Shown: one piece after another, positions 3,807 to 25,307 of the stretch
How the letters are laid out: each line of letters starts with the position of its first letter
Numbering within the stretch: position 1 is the stretch's first letter
From: Scytonema tolypothrichoides VB-61278
GTDB lineage: Bacteria > Cyanobacteriota > Cyanobacteriia > Cyanobacteriales > Nostocaceae
DNA length: 46,939 nt
Reading direction: 5' to 3'
Assembly (NCBI RefSeq): GCF_000828085.3
Contig: NZ_JXCA02000016.1
Coordinates: 467,987 to 514,925 of the forward strand
The notes under the pieces: model-generated
What the model was told of the DNA's origin: nothing
The model's database searches: none
The model's input: the letters and a program-made list of their open reading frames with translations, nothing else
Made by a program: the position numbers and the translations under genes

Positions 3807-4120
3807 CCAAGAAAGAATTCAGAACTTAGAAGTCAGTAATCAGAAGGAGAAGTAGTAAAAAATATACAAAGCAATTCATTCATTTCTTTCAAAAAGAAAA
3901 AATGTATTTCATCAAGTAGGCGCGTAGAAATACGGCGTTATTATTTAAATCCCCGCGCATTTCTTTTTGGGGATGTCTTCCTAGCTGCGGAGTTCTAACA
4001 ACTGAGTTCTTCTTAAGATATTTTTTACTAATATTCCCCATCATCTTTGAACGTGCCAAAATAAAAACATATGAAAGCCTAGCCTACGTCTGACGGCTAC
4101 GCGAAAGCCATATTTGTCAC
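3807..4120 (+). other. hetF-kinase intergenic region
   Basis: No gene is seen here. A weak hairpin pairs ATCCCC (3949-3954) with GGGGAT (3969-3974) around a long loop and could end hetF transcription, but the T-run is inside the loop, so it is doubtful. Near 4078-4110 is a short palindromic repeat (GGCTACGCGAAAGCC type) of a kind common in Nostocales genomes. The kinase start codon has no clear Shine-Dalgarno sequence. Confidence 0.4.
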
Positions 4121-5344: not shown

Positions 5345-5663
5345 TAGATAGTACATCGTAAAAAATTATATAGTATTTTAATTTTTTTTACATAACTTAA
5401 TAATAATTATCGAAGCAAGGCTTTCTAAGCTGAACTTTTGTATTACAAATAAAGTGGGGAAAAATTGACAAATTTTACTTAACCTTAAAAAGGAAAATTG
5501 TAGGGGAGCCAGTGCGTTGGACGGGTTTCCCGGCTTGAAGCATCTGGCGTTGGGCATTGCCCATAAAAGGTTATGTAATAGAGATTTGAGATATTGCTAA
5601 GCAATGCCCACCTTACAGAAAACTGCTGTAAGTGCATGACAGCTTCATAAAAAGGAGATTAAT
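5345..5663 (+). other. Repeat-bearing intergenic region
   Basis: No gene is seen here. The stretch 5510-5620 holds dispersed repeat sequence: a GGGTTTCCCGGCTTGAAGC block, and TTGGGCATTGCCCA (about 5552-5565) with a later AATGCCCACC that can form a hairpin with it. AAGGAG (5652-5656) is the ribosome binding site of the aldehyde dehydrogenase gene. Confidence 0.5.
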
Positions 5664-7166
5664 ATGTCAACTTTAATTCAAGAAGCAGTTGGAATTTCTG
5701 TCAGCGACCAAGTGTCGAAATTTTTAACTCAGCCATTGAAACTACTGATTGGGGGAAAATGGGTTGAGTCTGCCAGTGGTCAAACCTTTCCTGTATATAA
5801 TCCGGCTACAGGTCATGTCATCACTCATGCGGCTTCTGGTGACAGCGAAGATATTAATCGAGCAGTACAAGCTGCACGTCAAGCGTTTGAAAGTGGTCCT
5901 TGGTCAAGACTCACTGTTTCAGAACGCGGACGACTCATTTGGAAACTAGCGGACTTAATAGAAGCAAACCTGGAAGAATTTGCCGAATTAGAATCCCTGG
6001 ATAATGGTAAACCAATCAGTGTTGCTCGTGTTGCCGATGTGCCAGGTGCGGTTGACTTGTTTCGCTACATGGCAGGATGGGCGACAAAAATTGAAGGAAA
6101 TACGATTCCTATCTCTGCTGGGACTCAATATTTTGCTTACACTGTGCGCGAACCTGTTGGAGTTGTCGGACAAATCATACCTTGGAATTTCCCCCTGTTA
6201 ATGGCTGCATGGAAATTAGGTCCGGCTTTAGCTGCTGGCTGCACAATCGTTTTGAAACCAGCTGAACAAACCCCCATCTCAGCTATTCGCTTAGGCGAAT
6301 TAATCTGTGAAGCTGGATTTCCTGATGGTGTGGTCAACATTGTGACTGGTTATGGTGAAACTGCGGGTGCTCCCCTAGCCGCACATCCCGATGTTGATAA
6401 AGTTGCCTTTACTGGGTCAACTGAAGTGGGTAGATTGATTGTCCAAGCTGCTGCTGGTAACCTCAAAAAAGTTTCTCTAGAACTAGGTGGTAAATCACCC
6501 AACGTCGTATTCAAAGATGCTGATTTAGAGACAGCGATTAAGGGCGCAGCCAATTCTATCTTCTTCAATCATGGTCAATGTTGTAATGCTGGTTCAAGAC
6601 TTTACATTCAACAAGACATTTTTGACCAAGTGGTAGAAGGTGTTGCTGCTGAAGCCAAGAAAATTAAAATTGGACCAGGACTTGACCCCAGCACAGAAAT
6701 GGGACCACTGATCTCTGATGAGCAACTCGACCGAGTTTATGGTTATATACAGTCAGGTTTTACTGAAGGTGCAAAAGCCGTAACTGGTGGACAGCTTATT
6801 GGCAACCAGGGCTATTTTGTGGAGCCGACAGTGCTGATTGATACTAAGCAAACAATGAAGGTGGTACAAGAGGAGATATTTGGTCCAGTCGTAACGGCGA
6901 TGCCTTTTAAAGACATGGATGAACTTGTCCCGGTAGCCAATGATAGCACTTATGGCTTAGCGGCAGGAATCTGGACTAACGATATATCAAAAGCTCATCG
7001 TTTAGCATCTAAATTGCGTGCTGGTACGGTTTGGATTAACTGCTATCACATCTTTGATGCTGCTTTGCCCTTTGGCGGCTACAAGCAGTCAGGATGGGGT
7101 CGAGACATGGGACACAATGCGCTAGAGCTTTACACTGAGGTCAAATCTGTTTGTGTGAAGCTTTGA
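5664..7166 (+). CDS. NAD(P)-dependent aldehyde dehydrogenase
   Basis: This 500-residue protein belongs to the ALDH superfamily (class 1/2 type, the length typical for the family). It oxidises an aldehyde to its carboxylate with NAD(P)+ in the cytosol. Visible motifs are the cofactor-binding IIPWNFPL, the GSTEVG turn, the general-base Glu in LELGGKSPNVV, and the catalytic Cys in FFNHGQCCNAGSR. The C-terminal LPFGGYKQSGWGRD motif is also intact. The closest recognisable type is betaine/retinal-like aldehyde dehydrogenase, but the substrate cannot be told from sequence. A good AAGGAG lies 7 nt before ATG. The gene ends at a strong bidirectional terminator shared with convergent gnd, so it is probably monocistronic. 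Confidence 0.92.
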   Translation: MSTLIQEAVGISVSDQVSKFLTQPLKLLIGGKWVESASGQTFPVYNPATGHVITHAASGDSEDINRAVQAARQAFESGPWSRLTVSERGRLIWKLADLIEANLEEFAELESLDNGKPISVARVADVPGAVDLFRYMAGWATKIEGNTIPISAGTQYFAYTVREPVGVVGQIIPWNFPLLMAAWKLGPALAAGCTIVLKPAEQTPISAIRLGELICEAGFPDGVVNIVTGYGETAGAPLAAHPDVDKVAFTGSTEVGRLIVQAAAGNLKKVSLELGGKSPNVVFKDADLETAIKGAANSIFFNHGQCCNAGSRLYIQQDIFDQVVEGVAAEAKKIKIGPGLDPSTEMGPLISDEQLDRVYGYIQSGFTEGAKAVTGGQLIGNQGYFVEPTVLIDTKQTMKVVQEEIFGPVVTAMPFKDMDELVPVANDSTYGLAAGIWTNDISKAHRLASKLRAGTVWINCYHIFDAALPFGGYKQSGWGRDMGHNALELYTEVKSVCVKL

Positions 7167-7176
7167 TTCAAAAAAA

Positions 7177-7203
7177 AGTGACTCTGAGTTTTTCAGAGTC
7201 ACT
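7177..7203. terminator. Bidirectional terminator between ALDH gene and gnd
   Basis: A perfect 11-bp stem pairs AGTGACTCTGA (7177-7187) with TCAGAGTCACT (7193-7203). A run of A on the left gives a T-run for the minus-strand transcript (gnd), and CAAAATTTT follows on the right for the plus strand. Confidence 0.85.
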
Positions 7204-7291
7204 CAAAATTTTCAACTGAAGCTTGTGAAACTACCGTAGAACTTGAAGGTGTCGTTGGTTGTCTAGCTTGCAGTTGTTCTAGTATTTCAGT

Positions 7292-8722
7292 TTACACAGA
7301 TGCTTCAGTAATGGGTACCCATTCTGTATGGAAGCTACCAGGCTTATCGACACGTTCGTAGGTGTGTGCGCCGAAGTAGTCGCGTTGAGCTTGTGTGAGG
7401 TTTTGAGGTAGGCGATCGCGACGATAGCTATCAAAGTAATCCAAAGATGCACTAAATGCGGGCACTGGAATTCCCAGTTTAGCGGCTGTTACCAACACTT
7501 CACGCCAAGCTGTTTGTCTGTCAAGAATTGTCTGCTTGAATTCCGGGGCTAACAGGAGGTTAGGCAGTGCTGGATTTTCGCCAAACGCATTCTTAATCTT
7601 GTTCAAAAATCCAGCGCGAATAATACAGCCACCTTTCCAAATCCGAGCCAATTCACCCAGTTTCAAATTCCAGTTATAGGTTTGAGATGCTTTAGAAAGC
7701 AGCGCCATTCCTTGGGCGTAAGAACAGATTTTCGAGCAGTAGAGGGCGTCACGCACCTTGTTGATAAACTCTTTGGTATCTCCGTCATACTTGCCAGTAG
7801 GACCTGTGAGTACCTTCGATGCTGCAACCCGTTCTTGTTTGTAGGAAGAGATGATGCGACCATTAACTGCTGCGATAATTGTTGGTATGGAAACACCCAA
7901 TTCCAAAGCAGTCTGTACTGTCCAACGTCCGGTTCCCTTTTGACCTGCGGAGTCAACAATCAAATCTACCAAAGGTAAATTTGTGTCTGGGTCAATGTAG
8001 GGGAAAATGTTTGCCGTAATTTCAATCAAAAACGAATTGAGTTCGTCTGTGGTGTTCCATTGGGCAAAAACTTCGTGGAGTTGATTATGGTCAAGTCCTG
8101 CGGCATTTTTCAGTAAATCGTAGGCTTCTGCAATCAGCTGCATATCGCCGTACTCAATACCATTGTGTACCATTTTGACGTAATGACCAGAACCACCAGG
8201 ACCAATGTAAGTCACACAGGGACCATCATCGACTTGGGCGGCAATTTTTGTAAAAATTGGCTCCAGATACTGGTAAGAGCTTTGCGTACCTCCTGGCATT
8301 AAGGAAGGACCATTGAGTGCTCCTTCTTCACCACCGCTAACGCCCATACCAATGAACCGAAACCCAGCGGGTTCTAATTCTTGGGTGCGTCGATCCGTAT
8401 CTTCAAACCAAGAGTTGCCACCATCGATAATAATGTCGCCTTCGTCCAGCAAGGGTTTGAGCTGACCAATCACTGCATCTACAGGTTTACCTGCTTGCAC
8501 CATGATTAAAATTCTTCTGGGACGTTCCAAGGAGCCAACGAACTCTTCTAGAGTAAAAGCAGCTTTAGCGTTTCTTCCTTGGGCACGCTCAGCCATGAAT
8601 TTATCAGTTTTGTCGCGCGAGCGGTTGTAAACTGCGATTGGAAAGCCGTTACGTTCAACGTTTAGAGCGATATTTTCACCCATAACAGCTAGACCAATCA
8701 CACCAAAGCTTTGCTGTGTCAT
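7292..8722 (-). CDS. gnd: 6-phosphogluconate dehydrogenase (decarboxylating)
   Basis: Gnd catalyses 6-phosphogluconate + NADP+ to ribulose 5-phosphate + CO2 + NADPH, the second oxidative step of the pentose phosphate pathway. This pathway supplies reductant in the dark and in heterocysts. The 476-residue length is typical. The N-terminal dinucleotide fold starts GVIGLAVMGENIALN with NRS after the second strand (NADP-type). The catalytic region shows SGGEEGALNGPSLMPGG, the KMVHNGIEYGDMQ helix and the GTGRWT motif. A single ATG start is preceded by a normal intergenic region. It is transcribed toward the ALDH gene and stops at the shared terminator. Confidence 0.97.
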   Translation of the reverse strand: MTQQSFGVIGLAVMGENIALNVERNGFPIAVYNRSRDKTDKFMAERAQGRNAKAAFTLEEFVGSLERPRRILIMVQAGKPVDAVIGQLKPLLDEGDIIIDGGNSWFEDTDRRTQELEPAGFRFIGMGVSGGEEGALNGPSLMPGGTQSSYQYLEPIFTKIAAQVDDGPCVTYIGPGGSGHYVKMVHNGIEYGDMQLIAEAYDLLKNAAGLDHNQLHEVFAQWNTTDELNSFLIEITANIFPYIDPDTNLPLVDLIVDSAGQKGTGRWTVQTALELGVSIPTIIAAVNGRIISSYKQERVAASKVLTGPTGKYDGDTKEFINKVRDALYCSKICSYAQGMALLSKASQTYNWNLKLGELARIWKGGCIIRAGFLNKIKNAFGENPALPNLLLAPEFKQTILDRQTAWREVLVTAAKLGIPVPAFSASLDYFDSYRRDRLPQNLTQAQRDYFGAHTYERVDKPGSFHTEWVPITEASV

Positions 8723-9018
8723 AAAATTCTGGCTAACTCTTGCAGATTCTCTTTATCTTTAAGGGTAGTCTGAGATTTCTGCTTCTCTCCTAAAGAAGAC
8801 ATTAAGACTTCCTAAACTCAGCCAAAATATTCCACCGACATAGATAAAAAATTTTAATTTGTATCTGATTCAACAACTTTCTGGCAAAATTTGCAAAATT
8901 GAGATATTTAGTTAAACGATGGGGGATTCAATACTTAAAATTGAGTACTTATACTCACAATTCCTCATCATCAATCCCAAATCCCTAGTAAAATGTCACA
9001 GTAAGGAGTCACCACAAA
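8723..9018. promoter_or_regulatory. Divergent promoter region of gnd and ycf66-like gene
   Basis: This 296-bp AT-rich spacer separates the divergent gnd and ycf66-like genes and must contain both promoters. I see no clear operator or RNA element. AAGGAG at about 9002-9007 is the likely ribosome binding site for the plus-strand gene. Confidence 0.4.
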
Positions 9019-9762
9019 ATGCTGGCATATATCCTGGCGTTGACTGTTGGTCTTGGAAGTATAGCGCTTTACATAGCAGCTTTCTTTTTTCCTGAAATCC
9101 ACCGTAAGAATGATTTTATCTGGAGTGGTGTAGGGCTGTTCTACGCCTTGGTCTTATGGATATTTGCCCGACGCATTAGTGGAGGTCTTTTGCTCGGTCA
9201 TGTGGCGAGTGTGGCTCTTTTAGGCTGGTTTGGCTGGCAAACACTGTCATTACGTCGTCAAATTACACCAAAGATACAACAAACCCAAATACCCAGCACA
9301 GAGGTAGTAAAAACAAATATTCAGCAGCAGGTTTCTCAGTTGTCACTTCTACAAAAACTTGCTCAGTTACCAAAAGCTATTGGTAGTCGTTTTTCCGGGG
9401 TGAAAGACCGAGCGCAAACTGTGGGTAAAAAGACACCCGAAAAGTCTAAAACGACACATACTCCTGTACCCACAGCCAAACCTGTAGTTGAGATTGTCGA
9501 TGAACGCATTCCAGTCGCAGACGAACCAGCAGTTACCCCGCCTGCTACCACTGATACCGAAGCAAAAACCCCAACAGCAGAACTACCAGCACCTCCAGTC
9601 GTAGAGGTTATCCCGCAAGAAGCTGTTTTACCAAATGTCCTATCTGCGGAATTGGTGGAAGCGGATCTTGCACACACGGAAACTGAGGAAAAAACAGTTC
9701 TAGAGGAGGAAGTTACTCGCCCAGCAGATGCGCCACCGAAGAACCAGGCTGAAGGTTCATAA
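9019..9762 (+). CDS. Ycf66 family membrane protein
   Basis: Ycf66 proteins are conserved in cyanobacteria and some plastids and have no settled function. The 247-residue product has an N-terminal membrane domain with three hydrophobic helices (about 1-24, 32-50 and 54-72), matching the family pattern (MLAYILALTVGLGSIALY and the FIWSGVGLFYALVLW segment). It is followed by a long hydrophilic tail rich in Pro, Thr, Glu and Val (about 130-247) that is probably disordered. The tail is longer than in the plastid homologues. The gene stands alone between divergent gnd and ileS downstream. Confidence 0.88.
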   Translation: MLAYILALTVGLGSIALYIAAFFFPEIHRKNDFIWSGVGLFYALVLWIFARRISGGLLLGHVASVALLGWFGWQTLSLRRQITPKIQQTQIPSTEVVKTNIQQQVSQLSLLQKLAQLPKAIGSRFSGVKDRAQTVGKKTPEKSKTTHTPVPTAKPVVEIVDERIPVADEPAVTPPATTDTEAKTPTAELPAPPVVEVIPQEAVLPNVLSAELVEADLAHTETEEKTVLEEEVTRPADAPPKNQAEGS

Positions 9763-9795
9763 TTCTTGTTATGGGCGATCGCACTACCACAGCGC

Positions 9796-9815
9796 TTGTG
9801 GGCGACCGCCCACAA
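9796..9815 (+). terminator. Possible terminator after ycf66-like gene
   Basis: An 8-bp stem TTGTGGGC/GCCCACAA with a GACC loop is followed by ATTTTGC. The T-run is short, so termination is only probable. Confidence 0.45.
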
Positions 9816-9837
9816 ATTTTGCACCTCAAACTAAAAT

Positions 9838-9943
9838 TCCATCAGATTTAGTACCAGCTATAGAACTGGGAGTAGACAAGTTATTGCACCCTTAGCGTTT
9901 GCAGATGTCGGGCTTGCTATTAGTGAAATGCTGCGACCAGTGT
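9838..9943 (+). pseudogene. Short coding remnant of unknown origin
   Basis: Between the ycf66-like gene and ileS, one frame reads SDLVPAIELGVDKLL and an adjacent frame continues APLAFADVGLAISEMLRPV before a stop. Together they look like the C-terminal end of a once-intact protein with a frameshift near 9885-9890. I do not recognise the family. The rest of 9816-10120 holds only the ileS leader. Confidence 0.3.
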
Positions 9944-10120
9944 AACTTCTAGACTGTGCTAGAGACGACTGTTCCCAAGAAGCAGTAAAGACGAGAATTC
10001 ACTGTTACAATACGACAAGTTCCCCAATTTACCAAGGATGCAAAGCATCCTACTAGTTGAAAAGCTTCTCACCAATATCATAGATGAGAAGAAGACATTA
10101 TTATTCCTTGGCATGAAATC

Positions 10121-12994
10121 GTGACAGAAACTGGAAAATACAAAGATACCGTAAATTTACCCAAAACGAACTTTGATATGCGAGCGAACGCTGTCAAGCG
10201 GGAGCCAGAAATCCAGAAGTTTTGGGAAGAAAATAAAATTTATGAACGCCTGTCTCAAAATAATCCAGGCGAGTTATTTATATTGCACGACGGACCACCT
10301 TACGCAAATGGTTCTCTCCATCTTGGTCACGCTTTAAATAAAATTCTTAAAGACATTATTAACCGCTATCAACTGCTGCGCGGGCGGAAAGTTCGCTACA
10401 TACCTGGTTGGGATTGTCACGGTTTGCCAATTGAACTCAAAGTTTTGCAGAATATGAAGTCGGCAGAACGGCAAAACTTGACGCCTCTGCAGCTACGTCA
10501 CAAAGCGAAAGAATTTGCCCTTTCGACGATCAATGAACAGCGTGACAGTTTCAAACGCTATGGAATTTGGGGTGATTGGGAACATCCGTATTTGACTTTG
10601 AAACCAGAATATGAGGCGGCTCAAGTTGGTGTTTTCGGTCAAATGGTGTTAAAAGGCTACATCTATCGTGGTTTGAAGCCAGTACACTGGAGTCCCAGTT
10701 CTAATACAGCGTTGGCAGAAGCTGAGTTGGAGTATCCTGAAGGTCACACTTCGCGTAGTATCTATGTGGCTTTCCCAATGACGGGTTTATCGGAGACGGT
10801 AAAACCTGCACTTGGAGAATTTTTGCCTGACTTGCGTGTAGCTATTTGGACGACGACGCCTTGGACAATTCCCGCTAACTTGGCTGTTGCTCTTAATCCA
10901 TCTTTAAATTACGCAGTTGTTGAATGTAAAGAGGTTGCATCCGAGAATTCTACAAAGTATCTAATTGTTGCGGCTGATTTGGTGGAACGTCTATCTGAGG
11001 TTCTGGGAACTCAGCTAACAGTAAAAGCCACAGTTAAAGGGAAAGATTTAGAACACTCTACTTACCGTCATCCTTTGTTTGACCGCGAAAGTCCGATTGT
11101 CATCGGCGGTGATTATGTGACCACTGAATCAGGTACTGGTTTGGTACACACTGCTCCTGGTCATGGTCAAGAAGACTACATAGTAGGTCAGCGGTATGGT
11201 TTACCTATCCTTGCACCAGTAGATGACAATGGAAACTTTACCGAGGAAGCGGGACAGTTTGCTGGGTTGAATGTTCTGGGTGATGGAAATCAAGCGGTAA
11301 TTGATGCGTTGACGGCGGCGAGTTCTCTCCTGAAGGAGGAAGCTTATGTCCATAAATATCCTTATGACTGGCGGACGAAGAAACCAACGATTTTCCGGGC
11401 GACTGAACAGTGGTTTGCAAGCGTTGAAGGATTTCGGGATGAGGCGCTGAAGGCGATCGCCACAGTAAAATGGATTCCCGCCCAAGGCGAAAACCGCATC
11501 ACACCAATGGTTGCAGAACGTTCTGACTGGTGTATCTCCCGTCAGCGCAATTGGGGTGTCCCAATTCCTGTTTTTTATGATGAAGAAAACGGTGAACCTC
11601 TACTGAATGAAGAAACCATTTCTCATGTTCAAGGAATCTTTGCCGAAAAGGGTTCTGATGCTTGGTGGGAACTTTCAGTTGAGGAGTTATTACCAGAAAA
11701 ATACCACAACAACGGTCGGTCTTACCGTAAGGGGACTGATACGATGGATGTGTGGTTTGATTCTGGTTCATCCTGGGCAGCTGTCGCTCAACAGCGATCA
11801 GAATTGCGGTATCCTGCTGATATGTATCTGGAAGGTTCAGACCAGCATCGCGGTTGGTTCCAGTCAAGTTTGCTCACCAGTGTAGCAGTGAACGACTGTG
11901 CACCTTATAAAACGGTGTTGACTCACGGCTTTATCTTAGATGAACAAGGGCGCAAGCAAAGTAAGTCTTTGGGAAATACGGTTGAACCGAAAGTCGTGAT
12001 TGAAGGTGGGAAAAATCAGAAAGAAGAACCCGCCTATGGTGTAGACGTGTTGCGTTTATGGGTGTCGTCAGTAGATTACACCTCAGATGTTCCTCTTGGT
12101 AAAAATATCCTCAAGCAACTGACGGATATCAGAAACAAGATTCGCAATACAGCGCGATTCTTGTTGGGTAACTTGCACGATTTTGATCCGGAGAAAGACG
12201 CAGTACCCTTCGAGGAATTACCGCAGCTTGATCGCTATATGCTGCACCGGATGACGGAAGTCTTTAAGGAAGTGACACAAGCGTTTGAGAGTTTCCAATT
12301 CTTCCGCTTTTTCCAAACAATTCAAAATTTCTGCGTGGTTGATTTATCCAACTTCTATCTGGATGCTGCGAAGGATAGACTGTACATCAGTGCGCCAAAT
12401 GGTTTCCGGCGTCGTAGCTGTCAAACGGTGCTGAAGATTGCTTTGGAAAATTTAGCACGGGCGATCGCCCCCGTACTATGCCACATGGCAGAAGACATCT
12501 GGCAATTTCTCCCTTACGAGACACCTTACAAGTCAGTGTTTGAAGCTGGTTGGGTGCAGTTGGAGGAAAAGTGGCAAAATCCAGAATTAGCAGTCGTGTG
12601 GCAGCAATTGCGACAACTGCGCACTGAGGTTAACAAAGTTCTGGAAGAAGCCAGAGTCAAGAAAATGATTGGTTCTTCCCTGGAAGCTAAGGTGTTGCTG
12701 TATGTAGCAGATGAGCAGTTACGCTCCACAGTAAAATCACTGAATGCAAGTCAGAATGGAATAGATGAACTGCGTTACTTGTTTATCACCTCTGGGGTAG
12801 AGTTATTGGATTCTCCGGAAGCGGTGCAAGGATTGGAGTACAAATTGCAGTCCGATGCATGGGAAATTGGAATTGTGAATGCAGAGGGGCAGAAGTGCGA
12901 TAGGTGCTGGAACTACTCAACTCATGTCGGAGAGTCAGCTGAACATCCCCTGATTTGCGAACGTTGTGTTTCTGCTTTAGCAGGAGAGTTTTAA
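10121..12994 (+). CDS. ileS: Isoleucyl-tRNA synthetase
   Basis: IleS is the class I synthetase that charges tRNA-Ile and edits misactivated valine. The 957-residue length fits the bacterial form. The Rossmann catalytic domain carries the HIGH-type motif HLGH (in PYANGSLHLGHALN) and the KMSKS-type loop KQSKS (in GRKQSKSLGNTV). The large CP1 editing domain lies between them, including TTTPWTIPANLA. The anticodon-binding domain follows, and the C-terminus has a zinc finger (CDRCW...CERC). The start is GTG at 10121, matching the conserved N-terminus (DTVNLPKTNFDMRANA). No T-box leader is seen, as expected for a cyanobacterium. Confidence 0.98.
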   Translation: MTETGKYKDTVNLPKTNFDMRANAVKREPEIQKFWEENKIYERLSQNNPGELFILHDGPPYANGSLHLGHALNKILKDIINRYQLLRGRKVRYIPGWDCHGLPIELKVLQNMKSAERQNLTPLQLRHKAKEFALSTINEQRDSFKRYGIWGDWEHPYLTLKPEYEAAQVGVFGQMVLKGYIYRGLKPVHWSPSSNTALAEAELEYPEGHTSRSIYVAFPMTGLSETVKPALGEFLPDLRVAIWTTTPWTIPANLAVALNPSLNYAVVECKEVASENSTKYLIVAADLVERLSEVLGTQLTVKATVKGKDLEHSTYRHPLFDRESPIVIGGDYVTTESGTGLVHTAPGHGQEDYIVGQRYGLPILAPVDDNGNFTEEAGQFAGLNVLGDGNQAVIDALTAASSLLKEEAYVHKYPYDWRTKKPTIFRATEQWFASVEGFRDEALKAIATVKWIPAQGENRITPMVAERSDWCISRQRNWGVPIPVFYDEENGEPLLNEETISHVQGIFAEKGSDAWWELSVEELLPEKYHNNGRSYRKGTDTMDVWFDSGSSWAAVAQQRSELRYPADMYLEGSDQHRGWFQSSLLTSVAVNDCAPYKTVLTHGFILDEQGRKQSKSLGNTVEPKVVIEGGKNQKEEPAYGVDVLRLWVSSVDYTSDVPLGKNILKQLTDIRNKIRNTARFLLGNLHDFDPEKDAVPFEELPQLDRYMLHRMTEVFKEVTQAFESFQFFRFFQTIQNFCVVDLSNFYLDAAKDRLYISAPNGFRRRSCQTVLKIALENLARAIAPVLCHMAEDIWQFLPYETPYKSVFEAGWVQLEEKWQNPELAVVWQQLRQLRTEVNKVLEEARVKKMIGSSLEAKVLLYVADEQLRSTVKSLNASQNGIDELRYLFITSGVELLDSPEAVQGLEYKLQSDAWEIGIVNAEGQKCDRCWNYSTHVGESAEHPLICERCVSALAGEF

Positions 12995-16975: not shown

Positions 16976-17269
16976 TTAAAGAACAACGCGATCGTACCTC
17001 TTCCCGGCGTTTCCCATAACCTCCCAGGCATTACTTTCCCACCGTCTTAGGGTTGCTCTAATTGTGTGCTCGTGGCACTCAAAAATCTTAGCGATACGCA
17101 TGATTGCGTCTGCGCCCTGCGCAATCGCTGGTACTGTCCATCCTTGGGCATTGAGTCGCAACATATGAGCGCGGTCGCGCGTACGTTGAGGTACTGTAGT
17201 CGCAACGCGTAATTCTGACATAGTACGGTCTTGTTCATCAGTCAATACAATCTGAGTCGGAGGAGGCAT
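16976..17269 (-). pseudogene. IS630-type transposase N-terminal remnant with internal repeat
   Basis: The 97-codon frame begins like the DNA-binding N-terminus of an IS630-type transposase (LTDEQDRTMSELRVATTVPQ, then RDRAHMLRLNAQGW and FECHEHTIRATLRRWE). The DDE catalytic domain is missing, so it is a remnant. Within the helix-turn-helix, the expected AIAKIFECHE is interrupted by ten extra residues encoded by a palindromic repeat (17091-17128). The frame degenerates after residue 80. Confidence 0.75.
17091..17128 (+). repeat. 38-bp palindromic repeat splitting a HIP1 site
   Basis: The element starts GCGAT and ends ATCGC, with ACGCATGATTGCGTC and GCGCCCTGCGC hairpin segments inside. Removing 17096-17125 (exactly 30 bp, ten codons) leaves GCGATCGC, a HIP1 octamer, and restores the transposase motif. 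The same family occurs at 31559-31595 and 46071-46135. Confidence 0.7.
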
Positions 17270-18481: not shown

Positions 18482-21079
18482 CTAGATCAACGGTAGTCGA
18501 ATCTCAGTCGCTAATAAACTTTGTAAGCGATCCAATTGAGAACCTATTTGGTAGAGTAAATCGCCTTTCCCTAATAAACGAGCACCGGCTGTTTGTTTAC
18601 CTCCCAAAATAATAGCTGAATCTGCTTCACTAGCAGTTCTCAGTGCAACCCTCCCTGGTAAATTTGAGCGAATAATTGGGGTGACAATACCAGCTTCCGG
18701 GCGTTGAGTGGCGATAATTAGATGAATTCCTGCGGCTCTTGCCATTGCACCCAGTCGTTTTATACTTTGTTCTAATGCTGTGCGAGACTCCTTTTCTGCC
18801 ATGAAATCAGCGTATTCATCAAAGATGCAGACAATTCTAGGCAAAGGCTGACGAGAACGTTGATTATAAGTACTCAAGTCAGCGCATTTTGCTTTTTCAA
18901 ACCGCTGATAGCGCGATTCCATTTCTGTGAGGAGTTCTTGCATGAGTTCAATGGCGCGATCGCTGTCTTTCACAACAGGAGAATACAACCACTGCATCCG
19001 TTCAAACTCAGGAAATGTCACTCGTTTAGGATCAACGAGGGCGATTTGCAAATGTGCAGGGGAATGACGCAAGATGAGACTGAGAAGAAGCGATCGCAAA
19101 TACTCACTCTTCCCACTTCCAGTTGTCCCCCCAACCAAAAAGTGACACGTATTTGGATCAGACAAATCAGCTTCTATCAGTTGTCCCTCCAAATTTACCC
19201 CAATTGCAATTTTTACAGGTGCTGTTGCTGGTAAAACTTGCGATTTTATATAATTCTCAAACTTAGCAACTTGTCTGTCGGGACGAGGTAAATCAATACT
19301 GACATATCCCGCTTGAGGGGAAATCAGAGGCGGATTTGCTAACCCCAATTGAACTTGCAAATCTGCTGATAACTTTAGTATGGAGTTCACCTTAACACCA
19401 AGTTGAGGTTTAAGTTTCACTCGAACAAAAGCTGGACCAACAGCCGCCCCGTGGTAATCTACATTAATACCAAAAGATTGCAGCGTGTTCACTAAATCTT
19501 GTCCCATCTCATCAACATTATATGGTTGCTGATGATTGTTTTCCGTCTCCTCATCCTGCTCAACTTTTTCTTGTGGATTCTCTTCGTAGAATGATTCCTC
19601 ACCTTGAGATTCCACAAAGTAACTTTGACACTTTTGCTGCTGTGGACAAATTTTGCACAAGTGAGGCTGGGTTGTTAAAGGTGGAGAATTAGGTAATGGT
19701 GGTTCCCAAGTCAACCATTGACGCATTTGCTGTAATTTATAAGGAATCAACTGATGTACTGTATTTTCCAGTTGTTCCCAGGAATACTGATACTCTTTGA
19801 ATTCTGGCAAAACACAGTAAACTGCTGAGTCAACAGCTACTTTTTTCTTTTGCCACAGCATATAACTATAAAGCGCAACTTGAGCTAATTGTGCTGATGG
19901 ATCGGCTGGTTGATAAGTTTTAAATTCCACCACACAAAGGCGCTTTTTTTCAAAATTGTAGACTAAGCAATCAAATTCTCCTGCTAGCCGTTGCTGTGTG
20001 TCATCCGGCAGATTAAAGTAGTACTCAAGCTTGCGCTCTTCAGTGATAAAAGTGTCACGAATAAGTGTTTCTGCACTGCAGTAGCGACGATTGATGATTA
20101 GCAATTGAGCAAACTGTTTGATGAGTCCTTGTAATCCCTGCCAAACTTTGAATAATGCTTGTGCTTGACTATGGTCTTTTTTTATGCTTTCTTGTAAATG
20201 AGAATAAAACTTTATTTCATAAAAAATTTCTTGTAGACGAGAGGCTATTTCTTCTATCTGTGATTGTGGTGTGGTTGACTTCAAAAAATCTACAAATCGA
20301 GGTTCCTGAGCAAGCAAATCCACAAAATCATTAGCGAATTGATGAAAAGTGTTACCAATTCCAACAGCATTTTCTGGTGGCAAAAATAATGTATTGCCTC
20401 CAAAGCGCTGATTGAGATAAAATAAGCGTGGGCATTCAAAAGCAACTCGGACTTTTGTAGCGCTTAAAGATAATTGTTCAGATTTTTTTCTTGATTTTGA
20501 ACCATTAGCTACCATATCAAAAATACTACTTACAGCATTAGGGTTAGAAATTTCCAATAAGCGACGATGGACAGCAGCCAGATAGACTGTATCCATCGCA
20601 GCATAGTTTAGTTGTTTTTGTGTGAGAGGTCGTTTTCCCCAGTCGCTTCCCTGTTCTTCTTTATCTACATTAGAGAATTGACAAAGTTCTGTTGCTAAAG
20701 TTTTCAGTTGTAGATTAGAAACTTGCAAAACTTCGGGGGTAATTTTTCGGGCTAACTTCAGCGTACAGGTAACATTTGGTGCTTGCTTACCTCCGAGATA
20801 TTTTAAATCAAAGCTGGCGTTATGAAAGACCTTTTCTATTTGAGGATTAGCTATAATTTGATTAATAAAATATGCTGCTAAATCAGGTTTGTTCAATACA
20901 TCGAGGATAAAAGCAGAGTCACTTGTTAAGTTTGTCGGTTCAGCTAGAACTTGAATGAGCGACAGTCTGGGATAGTAAGTATCCCAGTCAGCGATTTCTG
21001 TATCTACCCATAGGGTTTTAGCCGAGGCGAATTTGTCTATTTGCGCCCGGATTTCAGTAGCTTGTGTGAGGTATTGCAT
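18482..21079 (-). CDS. DEDDy exonuclease-Cas4-like nuclease-FtsK motor fusion
   Basis: An 865-residue protein with three enzymatic modules. Residues 1-190 form an RNase D/DnaQ-like 3'-5' exonuclease with all DEDDy residues: Asp 26, Glu 28, Asp 91 (HNASFD), Tyr 159 and Asp 163 (YAAMD). Residues 205-490 are a Cas4/RecB-like PD-(D/E)XK nuclease: His 246, Asp 370 (GEFD), Glu 385-x-Lys 387 (VEFK), and four Cys for a 4Fe-4S cluster (216, 475, 478, 484). After an acidic linker (495-520), residues 525-865 resemble FtsK/SpoIIIE: a beta-type domain, Walker A GGTTGSGKS (650-658), Walker B IVCIFDE (Asp 754) and ATQRP (790-794). There is no membrane domain or winged gamma domain. It follows the AAA ATPase by 22 bp. 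A DNA-translocating nuclease is the natural reading; the cellular role is unknown. Confidence 0.9.
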   Translation of the reverse strand: MQYLTQATEIRAQIDKFASAKTLWVDTEIADWDTYYPRLSLIQVLAEPTNLTSDSAFILDVLNKPDLAAYFINQIIANPQIEKVFHNASFDLKYLGGKQAPNVTCTLKLARKITPEVLQVSNLQLKTLATELCQFSNVDKEEQGSDWGKRPLTQKQLNYAAMDTVYLAAVHRRLLEISNPNAVSSIFDMVANGSKSRKKSEQLSLSATKVRVAFECPRLFYLNQRFGGNTLFLPPENAVGIGNTFHQFANDFVDLLAQEPRFVDFLKSTTPQSQIEEIASRLQEIFYEIKFYSHLQESIKKDHSQAQALFKVWQGLQGLIKQFAQLLIINRRYCSAETLIRDTFITEERKLEYYFNLPDDTQQRLAGEFDCLVYNFEKKRLCVVEFKTYQPADPSAQLAQVALYSYMLWQKKKVAVDSAVYCVLPEFKEYQYSWEQLENTVHQLIPYKLQQMRQWLTWEPPLPNSPPLTTQPHLCKICPQQQKCQSYFVESQGEESFYEENPQEKVEQDEETENNHQQPYNVDEMGQDLVNTLQSFGINVDYHGAAVGPAFVRVKLKPQLGVKVNSILKLSADLQVQLGLANPPLISPQAGYVSIDLPRPDRQVAKFENYIKSQVLPATAPVKIAIGVNLEGQLIEADLSDPNTCHFLVGGTTGSGKSEYLRSLLLSLILRHSPAHLQIALVDPKRVTFPEFERMQWLYSPVVKDSDRAIELMQELLTEMESRYQRFEKAKCADLSTYNQRSRQPLPRIVCIFDEYADFMAEKESRTALEQSIKRLGAMARAAGIHLIIATQRPEAGIVTPIIRSNLPGRVALRTASEADSAIILGGKQTAGARLLGKGDLLYQIGSQLDRLQSLLATEIRLPLI

Positions 21080-21101: not shown

Positions 21102-23240
21102 TCATATTTTAGCTATGAAACAAATTAATTGGTCTTGTAGCTTAGCTTTTGGATTAATAATTTTAACTTTCTGTTCCTGACACAAGAGTTCAATCAATAG
21201 TTGAACATCAGGTTCTTTAACGAAAGAAAACTGACTGCTAGATTGTGTCATTAAAGTTGGTACACCCATGTAACCTTGGGTTTTGATTAGATTTAATAAG
21301 AAATCTTTGACAAGTCTTAGATCTTGTTTTCCATTTCTATGTTCTGGTTCAGGATCTTGTTTATAAACGATTCCTAAATCTTGTAACAAAGTACATTTTT
21401 CTAAAATTTTTGACTCACGGATTAAAGATTGTAATTGTTGTAAAGTAATAGTCTTACCTGCAATAACTAATTCCTGAGCAAGTGCAGAATTGACTAAGCT
21501 GTGATACGTCCCCAAATAATGAACAGAAGTCAAATGTGGCTTGAGATGACGATGATTAGTATAGGTGAAAATCTGTTTGTAGAGCTGATTTCCAGCAAGA
21601 TCTGGTTTCCCTAATCCTCCAGCCCGAATTAAGTACATAGTTTGGCAGAGATTTTGCTGAATCGCTTTCTGACAAGCACTCATCACATTGAAAAAACTTG
21701 TCATATGTGAATCTTCTGTCCAGACTATTCCTACTCGTTCACCCTTACCAGGTTGTTGATAACTTAGGGAATAACTGGCGTACTTTCCACTTATGAGTTT
21801 GGTCTTAATTCCTTGTACTTCTAAGGCGGCTAGAGCTTCTTGCAACATCCCAATAAGTTCGGGAGCAGCTAACAGAGTAATTTTGGTGATTTTCTCCTGA
21901 ACTTTTTTATATTCTTTTTGCCATAGCAACTTGAATTCTGCTTCACTTTTCTCACTCTCATTCGGCTGATTAATAATTATCGGCGTTTCAGGAGTATTAG
22001 GTTTTTGAGTGACACGGGCAATAACTTTTTTATTATTGCCTGTCTGTTGTGATGTCAGAATTACCAAAGGTTTAGTAGTATCAGTTGTTTTCGTGTTTAA
22101 TATTGAAAGTTTATACTTTTGATACTCCTGTTTACCCAATTTTAGTGCATTTCTGGGCAGAGTTTTGCCACCAGGAAAATTCTCCTCTAATAATTGCCTC
22201 TTTAAAGGGAAAATAGGAGAAGTAGGCTGAGAGTTTGCTTCGTGGTGTAATGCCTTCAACCTATAAGCCCAGAGAGCTTCTGCTTGATCTAGTGTAATAA
22301 GTTTTAACTGAATTGATCGTTCAATCCTAGCTCTATCAGCAGTTTGAATGCGAGCATTATTTCTCTTCCAGGTATCAGTAATGACACTTATGATGACAAG
22401 AAAATTTTTGAGATAGTTATTATGGATAGTTGTATTAACATTAAATAAAACCTGAAAATCCTGAGATCCATCTGGTAAGCGAGGAATGTTGTCTAAATTA
22501 TCAAAACATAAAACGATAGGCTGAGTTTCAGTAGCAATCTTGCCAAAGTTAGCTAAGATATTTTTAGCTGCATCTTCTGAATCAATACAGTGTTTGACTT
22601 TCAACTCTTGCATAGACTCTTCACTCAAGTTATCCCCTTTTAACCACTCGCAGGCTAACGGGTATAGTTCTGGATTTGTCAGATCATGCAACACACCAAA
22701 AAAAATGTCAGCATTGTAAATGCCTGCTTGTTTATAGGTTTGCTTAAGATGCTTGATGAATTTTTGGCGATCGCTTTGTAATAATAGCCAGATACTATCA
22801 TTAAAAAATCTCTGCTGAAGATTGCGTTGCGTAAAGGCAGATAAGCTTTTTAGCCATAACATCAACTGAGATTCTTGCTCACCTTCTGGCACTTGAATTA
22901 AACTATCAACTGTGTAGCGTAGGACATGACGCCAGATGTAATCGCTATCAGCCCAAGGATCAATATAGGCAAAAAACGCTTTGGGGTTAAAGGTGCGTTT
23001 GAGCCGACCTAATAAATAACTTTTACCAGAACCTGGGTCACCTAAAAGCAACACACTACGACTACGATTGTCTGTGGAAACTAAATCTAATAGCTCTTCA
23101 AATGCAGCTATTGTTTCTTGATGAATTGACTCAACCATTAACATTGAGTCTTGTTGTTCTCCCCAAAAGTTACCGGGTTTCAAATTTGTCAGGTCAAAAG
23201 GGTTTACCTCGCGTTTAATGATGTCGTTTATGGATGGCAT
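21102..23240 (-). CDS. Large AAA-type ATPase with uncharacterised C-terminus
   Basis: A soluble 712-residue protein. The N-terminal P-loop module has Walker A GDPGSGKS (67-74), Walker B VLCFDNLD (Asp 247) and an arginine-rich ARIERSIQLK segment followed by a helical lid, the layout of Orc/STAND-like AAA ATPases. Residues 370-440 are a low-complexity linker. Residues 440-600 form an alpha/beta domain I do not recognise (GIVWTEDSHMTSFFNVMSA, then MYLIRAGGLGKP). The C-terminus (about 635-705) looks like a winged helix. It lies 59 bp after the winged-helix gene and 22 bp before the FtsK fusion, so the three are probably one operon. It may load or switch the fusion nuclease (inference). Confidence 0.8.
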   Translation of the reverse strand: MPSINDIIKREVNPFDLTNLKPGNFWGEQQDSMLMVESIHQETIAAFEELLDLVSTDNRSRSVLLLGDPGSGKSYLLGRLKRTFNPKAFFAYIDPWADSDYIWRHVLRYTVDSLIQVPEGEQESQLMLWLKSLSAFTQRNLQQRFFNDSIWLLLQSDRQKFIKHLKQTYKQAGIYNADIFFGVLHDLTNPELYPLACEWLKGDNLSEESMQELKVKHCIDSEDAAKNILANFGKIATETQPIVLCFDNLDNIPRLPDGSQDFQVLFNVNTTIHNNYLKNFLVIISVITDTWKRNNARIQTADRARIERSIQLKLITLDQAEALWAYRLKALHHEANSQPTSPIFPLKRQLLEENFPGGKTLPRNALKLGKQEYQKYKLSILNTKTTDTTKPLVILTSQQTGNNKKVIARVTQKPNTPETPIIINQPNESEKSEAEFKLLWQKEYKKVQEKITKITLLAAPELIGMLQEALAALEVQGIKTKLISGKYASYSLSYQQPGKGERVGIVWTEDSHMTSFFNVMSACQKAIQQNLCQTMYLIRAGGLGKPDLAGNQLYKQIFTYTNHRHLKPHLTSVHYLGTYHSLVNSALAQELVIAGKTITLQQLQSLIRESKILEKCTLLQDLGIVYKQDPEPEHRNGKQDLRLVKDFLLNLIKTQGYMGVPTLMTQSSSQFSFVKEPDVQLLIELLCQEQKVKIINPKAKLQDQLICFIAKI

Positions 23241-23299
23241 AGTTGTATTGAGGTGAGAATAGCGAACTGAGTTTTAGTGTGAAAAAGACTGATATATTG

Positions 23300-24151
23300 C
23301 TAGTTGACGCTGATAAAGAACACTGGACCACCAATATTCTGGATAATTCCAGCATCAATTTGTTCTGGAGTATAGGCGTTAGCTTCTTGCAAGGTACTTA
23401 ACTCAATTTGGTCACTCGCTTGCAGACGATAAAGTGCTTTATCAACTTCTTCCCGCGATAGCGGAGGTTGTAACTTTTGCCGCAAATGAAAGATTGGCAA
23501 ATAATTGTCAGTACCCAGTTCCCGATCCAATCTCCGGATAGTTTCTAAAATTTCTTCGTCAGTCAAATTGACAATTGTTACAGCAGCCGATTCTTCACTC
23601 TTGTGTGCTGAAGTACAGACTTCCTCAGGCTTACTATGTAGAGATTTCCGCAAAAAGCGCAGGTAATTATTCAGCAAATCCAAGTTAATCGTTGCAGCGC
23701 CCTTCGGACTATAATCTTCCCGTAAATACTCCAGTCCTCGTTCAGTCAGCCATACCTCAGCTTTAGTCTTTTTGATTTTGGATTCAGCGTCAATCAATCC
23801 CCGTTCACTCAGAGTTTTCAATATCTCCTCTTTCTCAGGCGCTTTCAATGACGACATTTTGATTTTGCTAGGGGAGACTTTACCAGCAGCTTTACTTATC
23901 TTTTCCAGCACCTTGAGTTCTTGGTCTGTGATAGGTAACTGAGCTTGTTCAAGTTTAAGCAGGGCGTTACCAGGTGGTAAAATCTTAACTGAGGCAATCT
24001 CGCGGGAATAGTCTAGTAGTTCGCGATCGCCTAAACTTTGACAAATTCTATCTTTACCCTTAAAAGATTTAAAACCACTAGCACTAAGACTTGACCGATA
24101 ATTGGCACATCCTAGTAACTTGAGTAGAAACTTTAACTCATTTGTATCCAT
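23300..24151 (-). CDS. Protein with several predicted winged-helix modules
   Basis: A 283-residue soluble protein with no enzymatic motif. Three segments look like winged-helix or related DNA/protein-binding domains: about 1-65; 75-147 (ELKVLEKISKAAGKVSPSKI, ending WLTERGLEYL); and 197-272 (LTDEEILETIRRLDREL then LSREEVDKALYRL). A charged linker joins the last two. It is the first gene of the presumed operon with the AAA ATPase and the exonuclease/Cas4/FtsK protein, so it is a candidate DNA-recognition or regulatory subunit. The gene is preceded by a 376-bp divergent intergenic region. Function is unknown. Confidence 0.7.
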   Translation of the reverse strand: MDTNELKFLLKLLGCANYRSSLSASGFKSFKGKDRICQSLGDRELLDYSREIASVKILPPGNALLKLEQAQLPITDQELKVLEKISKAAGKVSPSKIKMSSLKAPEKEEILKTLSERGLIDAESKIKKTKAEVWLTERGLEYLREDYSPKGAATINLDLLNNYLRFLRKSLHSKPEEVCTSAHKSEESAAVTIVNLTDEEILETIRRLDRELGTDNYLPIFHLRQKLQPPLSREEVDKALYRLQASDQIELSTLQEANAYTPEQIDAGIIQNIGGPVFFISVN

Positions 24152-24527: not shown

Positions 24528-25307
24528 ATGGATAATTTAGAATCGAAAATTATTGAAATTTTAAAGCTTGGTACTCCTCTAAGAGCAATACACATTGCTA
24601 ATAAGCTTGGAGTTGAAAGAAGAGAAATAAACCATTACCTATACTCTTCATTGAAGCATTTAGTAGTTCAAGACAGTGACTATAGATGGTTATTGAAGAC
24701 AAATCAAGCAAGCAATATTCAACGTCCTTCAACTCAATCGCCAACTTCTGATACTAAGTCATCACAACCTGCAAGACAAAATAACCTATATAGCTTTACG
24801 AAACAAGAGATTAAACAAGATAGTCCAATTAAATCACCAACTTCTCAAACTCCATCATCACAACCTGTCAAGCACGAGAACTTACAGAGATTTCATGAAA
24901 AATATTTTAAACAAAATAGTCAACCTCAGCCATCTCCAACGCCTCAAACTCCATCATCACAACCTGTAAGGAAAACTAATCCTTATGATATTCTCAACAG
25001 AGAACTTGCTCAAGCATCTCCAGAAGAGAAAGTGAAAATTTTAGAGAATGTTTTTAGGCAAGAGCAATTCACAAAACTAGAAGATGAGGAAATTAATGCT
25101 CTCCAATCAATTTTAGACCAATCTAGGCGTGAAATAGATATAGCTAAAACAGCATATACACAAGGTAAACTCAGCACGCGAACAAATAATCCTATTGTGA
25201 TTGCAGCTTTGTCAATTGCATTAACTTTAGGTACACTTTTTCTTATCAGTCAATTTATGCCAAAATCAACTAACCAACCTGCTCCAACATTTCCACAAAG
25301 TCAGTAA
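24528..25307 (+). CDS. Tail-anchored protein with Z-alpha-like winged helix
   Basis: A 259-residue protein. Residues 1-56 form a small winged helix; ERREINHYLYS (30-40) and Trp 54 line up with the Z-DNA-binding Z-alpha motif (K/R-K/R-x-I-N-x-x-L-Y ... W of ADAR1/ZBP1), keeping Asn 35, Tyr 39 and Trp 54. The middle (60-150) is a Ser/Pro/Gln linker in which the QTPSSQPV unit recurs. A charged helical region (150-215) is followed by one transmembrane helix (about 223-245) and a short tail, so the N-terminus should be cytosolic. It is transcribed divergently from the nuclease operon. Whether it binds Z-DNA or Z-RNA is untested; it could be an ordinary winged helix. Confidence 0.75.
   Translation: MDNLESKIIEILKLGTPLRAIHIANKLGVERREINHYLYSSLKHLVVQDSDYRWLLKTNQASNIQRPSTQSPTSDTKSSQPARQNNLYSFTKQEIKQDSPIKSPTSQTPSSQPVKHENLQRFHEKYFKQNSQPQPSPTPQTPSSQPVRKTNPYDILNRELAQASPEEKVKILENVFRQEQFTKLEDEEINALQSILDQSRREIDIAKTAYTQGKLSTRTNNPIVIAALSIALTLGTLFLISQFMPKSTNQPAPTFPQSQ

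What the first reader, a model, noticed from the sequence alone, without database searches (positions are those of the whole stretch)
18482..21079. One polypeptide joining a DEDDy exonuclease, a Cas4-like Fe-S nuclease and an FtsK motor
All catalytic residues of three modules appear intact: Asp 26/Glu 28/Asp 91/Tyr 159/Asp 163 (DEDDy), Cys 216/475/478/484 plus His 246/Asp 370/Glu 385/Lys 387 (Cas4-like), and Walker A 650-658 with Asp 754 (FtsK). FtsK motors are normally membrane bound or paired with a separate nuclease (as HerA with NurA). A soluble motor fused to two nucleases of different polarity and cofactor would be a self-contained DNA-degrading or end-processing machine. I know of no described protein with this architecture.
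Basis: partly seen in the sequence, partly recalled or inferred. Interest (0 to 1): 0.85.

Follow-up and report, generated by a model that had tools for sequence, protein, structure and literature searches.

The report
Predicted cyanobacterial DNA-pumping nuclease system
A cyanobacterial protein that joins two nucleic-acid-cutting enzymes to a DNA-pumping motor is real and sits in a three-gene operon that looks like a defence system against invading DNA, of a class predicted in print in 2024.

Summary
An 865-aa ORF on the MINUS strand (18482-21079) joins a DEDDy (RNase D/NrnC-like) exonuclease, a Cas4/RecB-like PD-(D/E)XK nuclease with four conserved cysteines, and FtsK-alpha plus an FtsK motor. 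Catalytic residues are unchanged in 28 of 30 aligned copies. It is one real gene.

It is not self-contained: it is the third gene of an operon (winged-helix protein, Orc1/Cdc6-like AAA+ ATPase, FtsK-nuclease). All 56 near-full copies among 79 loci fetched with the ATPase lie beside it. This matches the Orc/CDC6 class of "HerA/FtsK capture" anti-invader systems predicted in 2024, some with a 3'-5' exonuclease fused to FtsK.

New here: the ATPase and the winged-helix tail are exchanged as a cassette between near-identical operons (dS 1.3-1.9 in the ATPase N half against 0.11-0.33 in the nuclease and motor modules). In 9 of 12 genomes examined without a full copy, a REase-ParA/ParB pair lies at the corresponding ParA site. 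The motor groups with FtsK of cyanobacterial plasmids. Most likely a counter-invader, perhaps anti-plasmid, system; no activity has been shown. A new variant of a predicted kind.

The parts
18482..21079 (-). FtsK-nuclease fusion, 865 aa (P0001)
20525..21079 (-). module 1: DEDDy 3'-5' exonuclease (about aa 1-185), RNase D/NrnC-like
19610..20470 (-). module 2: Cas4/RecB-like PD-(D/E)XK nuclease with cysteines 216/475/478/484 (about aa 204-490)
19286..19558 (-). FtsK alpha domain (aa 508-598)
18521..19222 (-). FtsK motor (about aa 620-853), Walker A at 19106-19132
   Evidence: no FtsK_gamma match in the genome
21102..23240 (-). Orc1/Cdc6-like AAA+ ATPase, 712 aa (P0002): AAA+ about 1-340, alpha/beta insert about 430-620, winged-helix-like C-terminal end about 640-710
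   Evidence: AAA_16 in 22 of 22 members; model pLDDT 84; all 11 Foldseek hits with E up to 0.001 are Cdc6/ORC, best E 1.5e-4
23300..24151 (-). winged-helix protein, 283 aa, about three wHTH-like units (P0003)
   Evidence: model pLDDT 76, pTM 0.47; weak winged-helix hits only
21152..23452 (-). exchangeable cassette at its widest (3' end of P0003 plus nearly all of P0002), as seen against L152; ends approximate

Best explanation
The operon is a cyanobacterial counter-invader system of the Orc/CDC6 'HerA/FtsK capture' class. Proposed action: (1) the winged-helix protein and the Orc/Cdc6-like ATPase bind and judge the target DNA, or a structure that an invading element forms while it is copied or moved; (2) the ATPase loads the soluble FtsK ring on that DNA; (3) the ring pumps the DNA past its own Cas4-like nuclease, which cuts it, while the DEDDy exonuclease trims 3' ends or degrades fragments. 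The ATPase with the winged-helix tail is the specificity module and is swapped by recombination; the motor-nuclease is the constant effector. Shown here: domain content, operon, conservation of residues, cassette exchange, patchy presence, decay and replacement at one site. Inferred: every step of the action, and the target (plasmids are my favoured one).
For: Domains. Operon: all 56 near-full copies among the 79 loci lie beside the ATPase gene; the loci were fetched with the ATPase, so this counts copies given an ATPase. The domain set matches the published class. Cassette exchange: in WIN/L152, WIN/L123 and L101/L107 nucleotide identity falls from 86-98% to about 42-76% at the end of P0003 and is 82-100% in P0001; in these pairs dS is 1.3-1.9 in the ATPase N half, 0.11-0.33 in the three P0001 modules and 0.15-0.20 in P0003 1-200. 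WIN/L082 shows no drop (lowest window 82%). Over all 57 rows, distances of P0001 follow P0003 (r 0.84) but hardly the ATPase N half (r 0.31). Patchy: ATPase in 34 of 59 genomes. Remnants and breaks: L184 (G004), L061, L090, L119, L127, L132, L133. The motor groups with FtsK of cyanobacterial plasmids, support 99/99. A relative without the DEDDy part lies on a conjugative plasmid.
Against: No activity is known. None of 10 other window ORFs scanned matched a PADLOC family (the remaining ORFs were not scanned), so no defence island was seen. No gene that would mark self DNA was seen among the 15 window proteins scanned, so how self is spared is open. The operon is mostly chromosomal and inherited within one order, often near ParA (38 of 57 loci), and one scan found no viral contig that encodes the ATPase. 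dN/dS of the ATPase is low (0.10-0.32): the variation is exchange of alleles, not an excess of amino-acid changes. The pairs were chosen for contrast. G018 has an intact P0001 almost 1 Mb from its only ATPase gene.
Confidence: 0.68

Rival explanations
1. Housekeeping: the protein is this lineage's stand-in for a missing chromosomal FtsK, pumping chromosome DNA at division and clearing trapped or linked DNA with its nucleases.
For: In G000 the only FtsK_alpha match is P0001, and FtsK_gamma is over the cut-off in 0 of 40 genomes (one sub-threshold match, G042) while it rings in 8 of 14 control genomes. ParA lies in the fetched stretch in 38 of 57 loci with a P0001 covering 85% or more.
Against: 19 of 40 genomes have no FtsK_alpha match at all, so it is not needed. 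No membrane segment and no gamma domain. Swapping of the ATPase and decay of the gene in several genomes do not fit a housekeeping part. ParA P0004 is present in 55 of 59 genomes, with or without the operon, so it is a neighbour rather than a partner.
Confidence: 0.12
2. DNA repair: an end-resection machine working like HerA-NurA or AddAB, with the ATPase as loader.
For: A motor plus nucleases with intact residues; nuclease domains with this kind of cysteine set occur in AddB, Dna2 and Cas4 (recalled).
Against: Patchy presence, ATPase allele exchange and replacement at one site. The HerA model DUF87 stays below its cut-off (E 0.014).
Confidence: 0.1
3. A mobile-element or plasmid-maintenance module that has settled in chromosomes and serves its own upkeep against other elements rather than the host.
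For: Motor akin to FtsK of plasmids, a relative on a conjugative plasmid, and a site shared with a ParB/REase-ParA pair.
Against: No recombinase or replication gene was recognised beside the operon in the window (by eye), and most copies found are chromosomal.
Confidence: 0.1

Closest known systems
Orc/CDC6-linked 'HerA/FtsK capture' systems (Rakesh, Aravind, Krishnan 2024, PMC10853773; abstract and sections 22, 26, 27 read)
   Same: Orc/Cdc6 ATPase with C-terminal wHTH, FtsK with FtsK-alpha, REase, protein with several wHTH, and in some a 3'-5' exonuclease fused to HerA/FtsK.
   Different: Here exonuclease, Cas4-like nuclease, FtsK-alpha and motor are one polypeptide. The published inactive-REase insert of the ATPase is only suggested by the order of helices and strands in my model. 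'cyanobacteri' does not occur in that paper's main text. Cassette exchange and site sharing are not in the sections that I read.
SspH of SspFGH / DndH of DndFGH
   Same: Three-gene layout with a Walker A ATPase and a protein ending in an FtsK-like motor (PMC8092258, passages); SspH is the best PADLOC hit (227 bits).
   Different: Only the last fifth of SspH aligns (1364-1741 of 1766). On the motor tree the four SspH rows form their own clade and P0001 groups with plasmid FtsK.
FtsK of cyanobacterial plasmids (676-725 aa in the four used)
   Same: FtsK-alpha plus motor, 35-38% identity over the motor part; joined with P0001 at 99/99. Two of the four come from named plasmids, one from a 57-kb contig.
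   Different: No nuclease module found in the two scanned. The fourth (G136) lies on a 6.8-Mb contig, so this type is not confined to plasmids.
Canonical FtsK/SpoIIIE
   Same: Alpha domain and motor; solved FtsK 2iuu matches at E 3.6e-62.
   Different: No membrane part, no gamma domain.
HerA-NurA
   Same: A pump coupled to a nuclease, as a way of working (recalled; listings).
   Different: Other motor family (DUF87 below cut-off) and other nuclease families.

Membership tests
Orc/CDC6 HerA/FtsK capture system | Orc/Cdc6 family AAA+ ATPase | tested here: met
   all 11 PDB hits with E up to 0.001 are Cdc6/ORC chains, best E 1.5e-4; TM by target length 0.31-0.42, so a fold-level likeness only
Orc/CDC6 HerA/FtsK capture system | inactive REase inserted between AAA+ and C-terminal wHTH | tested here: inconclusive
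   an alpha/beta insert at about 430-620 and a wHTH-like end in the model; the insert was not searched on its own
Orc/CDC6 HerA/FtsK capture system | active REase | tested here: met
   by sequence only: PDDEXK_1 51.9 bits against a cut-off of 22, residues kept in 28 of 30; cutting not shown
Orc/CDC6 HerA/FtsK capture system | HerA/FtsK motor, in one set with FtsK-alpha | tested here: met
[quoted passage not shown]
   model pLDDT 76, pTM 0.47; no PDB hit with E up to 0.001
Orc/CDC6 HerA/FtsK capture system | action against invading DNA | not testable with these tools
   also unproven for the class in the sections read
SspFGH / DndFGH | large SspH/DndH with its own N-terminal region and a motor of that clade | tested here: not met
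   only the C-terminal part aligns; motor outside the SspH clade
SspFGH / DndFGH | phosphorothioate modification genes in the genome | not tested
   none matched among 15 window proteins scanned with PADLOC; the genome was not searched for them
Canonical FtsK | N-terminal membrane segments | tested here: not met
   no 19-residue window above 1.6
Canonical FtsK | gamma domain | tested here: not met
   no match in G000
HerA-NurA | HerA (DUF87) motor | tested here: not met
   DUF87 15.9 bits against a cut-off of 23.2

The most novel reading that the evidence does not exclude
Anti-plasmid immunity built from plasmid parts: a motor related to FtsK of plasmids is fused to two nucleases, and a swappable Orc/Cdc6-wHTH cassette, exchanged between strains like a restriction specificity subunit, sets which replicons are captured; it competes for one chromosomal site with a second segregation-derived module, a restriction-nuclease/ParA fusion with ParB.
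Probability: 0.3. Interest if true: 0.85.

Novelty: new variant of a known kind. Interest (0 to 1): 0.6.

Why it matters
The class is so far a prediction in print, as far as the sections read show. This family gives it a natural series: 204 relatives of the ATPase in one scan, intact and broken copies, versions without the exonuclease, one with a protein kinase inserted, and near-identical operons that differ mainly in the presumed recognition cassette. Such pairs would be ready-made tests of what the Orc/Cdc6 ATPase recognises, and of whether plasmid segregation machinery has been turned into immunity in cyanobacteria in whose genomes no FtsK_gamma match was found.

Tried and rejected
Two-gene or frame-shift artefact: rejected, since near-full fusions occur in 30 of 59 genomes. 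SspH membership: suggested by PADLOC, not borne out by the motor tree. ParA P0004 as a component: rejected (55 of 59 genomes). P0005 as a component: rejected, also present at sites without the operon (L176, L180, L184). Condensin MksE reading of P0003: one member of 18, not pursued. No solved structure matched the ATPase profile by sequence (E up to 0.1). Viral origin: none found (one scan). Defence island: no PADLOC hit in 10 other window ORFs. P0001 itself was not folded: both prediction jobs went to P0002 and P0003. A direct repeat that I first noted at the ends of the insert in L061 (and my note) did not stand: the 9-bp word lies off one junction, and only 7 bp are shared at the junctions. 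Literature: searches listed no title on this exact protein in the held library (two returned nothing); figures and supplements were not available. The Fisher test treats related genomes as independent, so its p value is too small. The count of type changes on the P0001 tree (23 for ten N-half types) came without a shuffle comparison. In one search, 22 of 79 loci without a P0001 covering 85% or more were dropped; one more row fell out for lack of P0003. In one search only two candidates per genome were scored, so its counts may be low. One search kept 79 loci of 204 relatives.

Full report
What is there. The ORF is on the minus strand, 18482-21079, 865 aa. The gene order on that strand is P0003 (23300-24151), 59 nt, P0002 (21102-23240), 22 nt, P0001. 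Pfam gives four domains above cut-off in P0001: DEDDy exonuclease, PD-(D/E)XK nuclease, FtsK alpha and FtsK motor. A profile of 31 rows hits solved FtsK (E 3.6e-62), a reconstructed diDNase ancestor (1.6e-16), NrnC, Rrp6 and RNase D. The Cas4-like part had no solved relative of its own at E 0.001 or better in that search; it rests on PDDEXK_1 (51.9 bits, cut-off 22), on Cas4 and Dna2 models below their cut-offs, on PADLOC Cas4 hits and on the conserved residues.

Conservation. The residues printed are the same in 28 of 30. L076 has E385D. L042 (1121 aa) carries a protein kinase domain between exonuclease and Cas4-like part (Pkinase E 1.5e-34); its fused Cas4-like part has lost the histidine, the aspartate and the lysine but keeps the cysteines, and a separate 287-aa Cas4-like gene upstream in the same cluster keeps histidine, aspartate, lysine and the four cysteines, with Asp for Glu385. 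That is a natural hint that the nuclease activity matters. Against it stands L062: P0003, P0002 and a lone 301-aa Cas4-like gene that lacks the histidine and other residues, with no FtsK part found by blastp in the stretch. Walker A position 652 differs in L052 and L060, position 650 in L042. dN/dS over four pairs is 0.12-0.23 (DEDDy), 0.11-0.26 (Cas4-like) and 0.06-0.11 (FtsK).

Distribution. Of 59 genomes, 30 have a near-full fusion, 4 fragments and 25 none (my count of the rows). Over the phylum, in 386 genomes drawn evenly, I count 33 with a near-full fusion, all in the window's order (rows, two candidates scored per genome). Copies without the DEDDy part: G202 (L071), L141, and the conjugative plasmid pPSE7367.01, where the match covers residues 204-860 at 59.5% beside a P0002 relative at 42%. 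A scan with the ATPase found 204 relatives; 79 loci were kept, and by my reading every title names a cyanobacterium. Of these 79, 56 have a near-full P0001 beside P0002, 1 lacks only the DEDDy part, 6 have partial copies, 4 are cut by the contig end and 12 have no substantial P0001 in the stretch. Among the 12, L134 ends soon after P0002, L105 holds only a 208-aa N-terminal ORF close to the contig end, and five carry a sister form P0003-P0002-P0002' without P0001 (L140, L143, L146, L153, L160). In G018 P0001 and the ATPase are almost 1 Mb apart.

The partners. P0002 is an AAA+ protein (AAA_16 in 22 of 22 members, KAP in 14, BrxC/D in 6). Its model (pLDDT 84) matches Cdc6/ORC chains best: all 11 hits with E up to 0.001, best 1.5e-4, TM by target length 0.31-0.42, so a fold-level likeness. 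P0003 looks like a row of winged helices at modest confidence; no PDB hit reached E 0.001.

Cassette exchange. Among 57 rows, P0001 distances follow P0003 (r 0.84) and ParA (r 0.74, 39 rows) but hardly the ATPase N half (r 0.31); the C half is between (r 0.74). L101 and L107 share 97% of P0001 and 97% of ParA but 62% and 74% of the two ATPase halves. Along the operon, nucleotide identity drops at about base 700, inside the last third of P0003, in WIN/L123, WIN/L152 and L101/L107, and recovers at about 2250, 3000 and 2700; WIN/L082 shows no drop. dS is 1.3-1.9 in the ATPase N half and 0.5-1.3 in its C half, 0.67-0.79 in P0003 201-283, 0.15-0.20 in P0003 1-200 and 0.11-0.33 in the P0001 modules of these pairs (the 30-codon linker: 0.06-0.41). 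This is replacement by a distant allele with recombination ends inside the operon. The pairs were picked because they contrast; the correlations use all rows.

The site. Twelve ParA loci were read, from 12 of the 29 genomes without a full P0001. In nine (L174, L175, L176, L178, L179, L180, L181, L183 and L184) ParA is flanked by a ParB-like gene and a gene that fuses an HSDR_N-like nuclease end to ParA; in seven of the nine the far side also shares a gene with the window's neighbourhood (a glycosyltransferase-like gene or P0005), in L178 and L181 only the ParA side does. Pfam on the L184 pair: HSDR_N_2 E 2.6e-7, AAA_31 E 3.5e-55, ParB_N E 1.4e-8. L184 is G004, of the window's own genus: only the last 236 residues of P0001 remain there, in a 290-aa ORF with a nucleotidyltransferase-like start. 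In L177, L182 and L185 no such pair was seen beside ParA; in those genomes the REase-ParA gene lies elsewhere. In L127 and L132 such a pair follows a P0001 cut to exonuclease plus Cas4-like part; in L133 a 491-aa ParA relative lies at the like place. Over 59 genomes, 4 of 30 with a full P0001 and 20 of 29 without it match the REase-ParA protein at E up to 1e-60 (some matches are broken or partial; Fisher p 1.6e-5, uncorrected for kinship). The two are not strictly exclusive: G002 (ParA part only, with a stop), G026 (in two frames), G027 and G058 have both.

The motor. Twelve P0001 motors and four cyanobacterial FtsK proteins form a 99/99 supported set apart from ten others (four SspH, FtsK/SpoIIIE and plasmid or DndD-linked FtsK of other bacteria). 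Several long branches make the deeper order unsafe, and one of the four, from G136, lies on a 6.8-Mb contig. G000 has no other FtsK_alpha match. A review's table notes assign the chromosomal FtsK-like genes of three model cyanobacteria to the YjgR/HerA clade and place another Anabaena gene on a plasmid (PMC7766704, passages only).

Literature. PMC10853773 (abstract, sections 22, 26 and 27 read in full; passages by term) predicts the class. PMC12839542 (abstract and passages) restates it. PMC8092258 (passages) reports SspFGH action and notes that the SspH C-terminal end is FtsK-like. No passage seen gives an experiment on an Orc/CDC6-FtsK system.

Judgement. What is added here is the cyanobacterial series, the cassette exchange and the shared site. 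I put 0.68 on counter-invader action and 0.3 on the anti-plasmid version.

Noticed in passing
L184:4814-6939, L174:6463-8558 and the like: A ParB-like gene beside a fusion of a type I restriction (HSDR_N-like) nuclease end to a ParA ATPase lies where other genomes hold the FtsK-nuclease operon; it may be another system made from segregation parts.
   Followed up: partly
L061, about 3870-11080: P0001 of G343 is split at the Walker A glycine codons by a roughly 7-kb insert that carries a tyrosine recombinase gene (Phage_integrase E 8e-39); 7 bp are shared at the junctions. In placement it recalls the excision elements of heterocyst-forming cyanobacteria (recalled, untested).
   Followed up: partly
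L042:10508-13873: 1121-aa version with a protein kinase domain inserted between the exonuclease and a degenerate Cas4-like part.
   Followed up: partly
L140, L143, L146, L153, L160; also L141, L147, L154, L158: Sister operon form with two tandem Orc/Cdc6-like ATPase genes and no FtsK-nuclease, in the last four next to the P0001 form or a cut-off copy of it; its effector is unknown.
   Followed up: no
window 16976-17269, minus strand: 97-aa ORF with a homeodomain-like HTH_23 match (E 3.9e-10), perhaps the start of a transposase and a remnant of an insertion sequence.
   Followed up: partly
window 24528-25307, plus strand: P0005: a winged-helix-like N-terminal end (z-alpha E 0.0022, below cut-off) and one hydrophobic segment, with a match to the last 52 residues of a PADLOC ZorC model (E 1.4e-7); a flanking gene, also present without the operon.
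   Followed up: partly
G018: P0001 at C1:2399619-2402231, P0002 at C1:1451643-1453742: Intact FtsK-nuclease gene almost 1 Mb from the only ATPase match of that genome.
   Followed up: no
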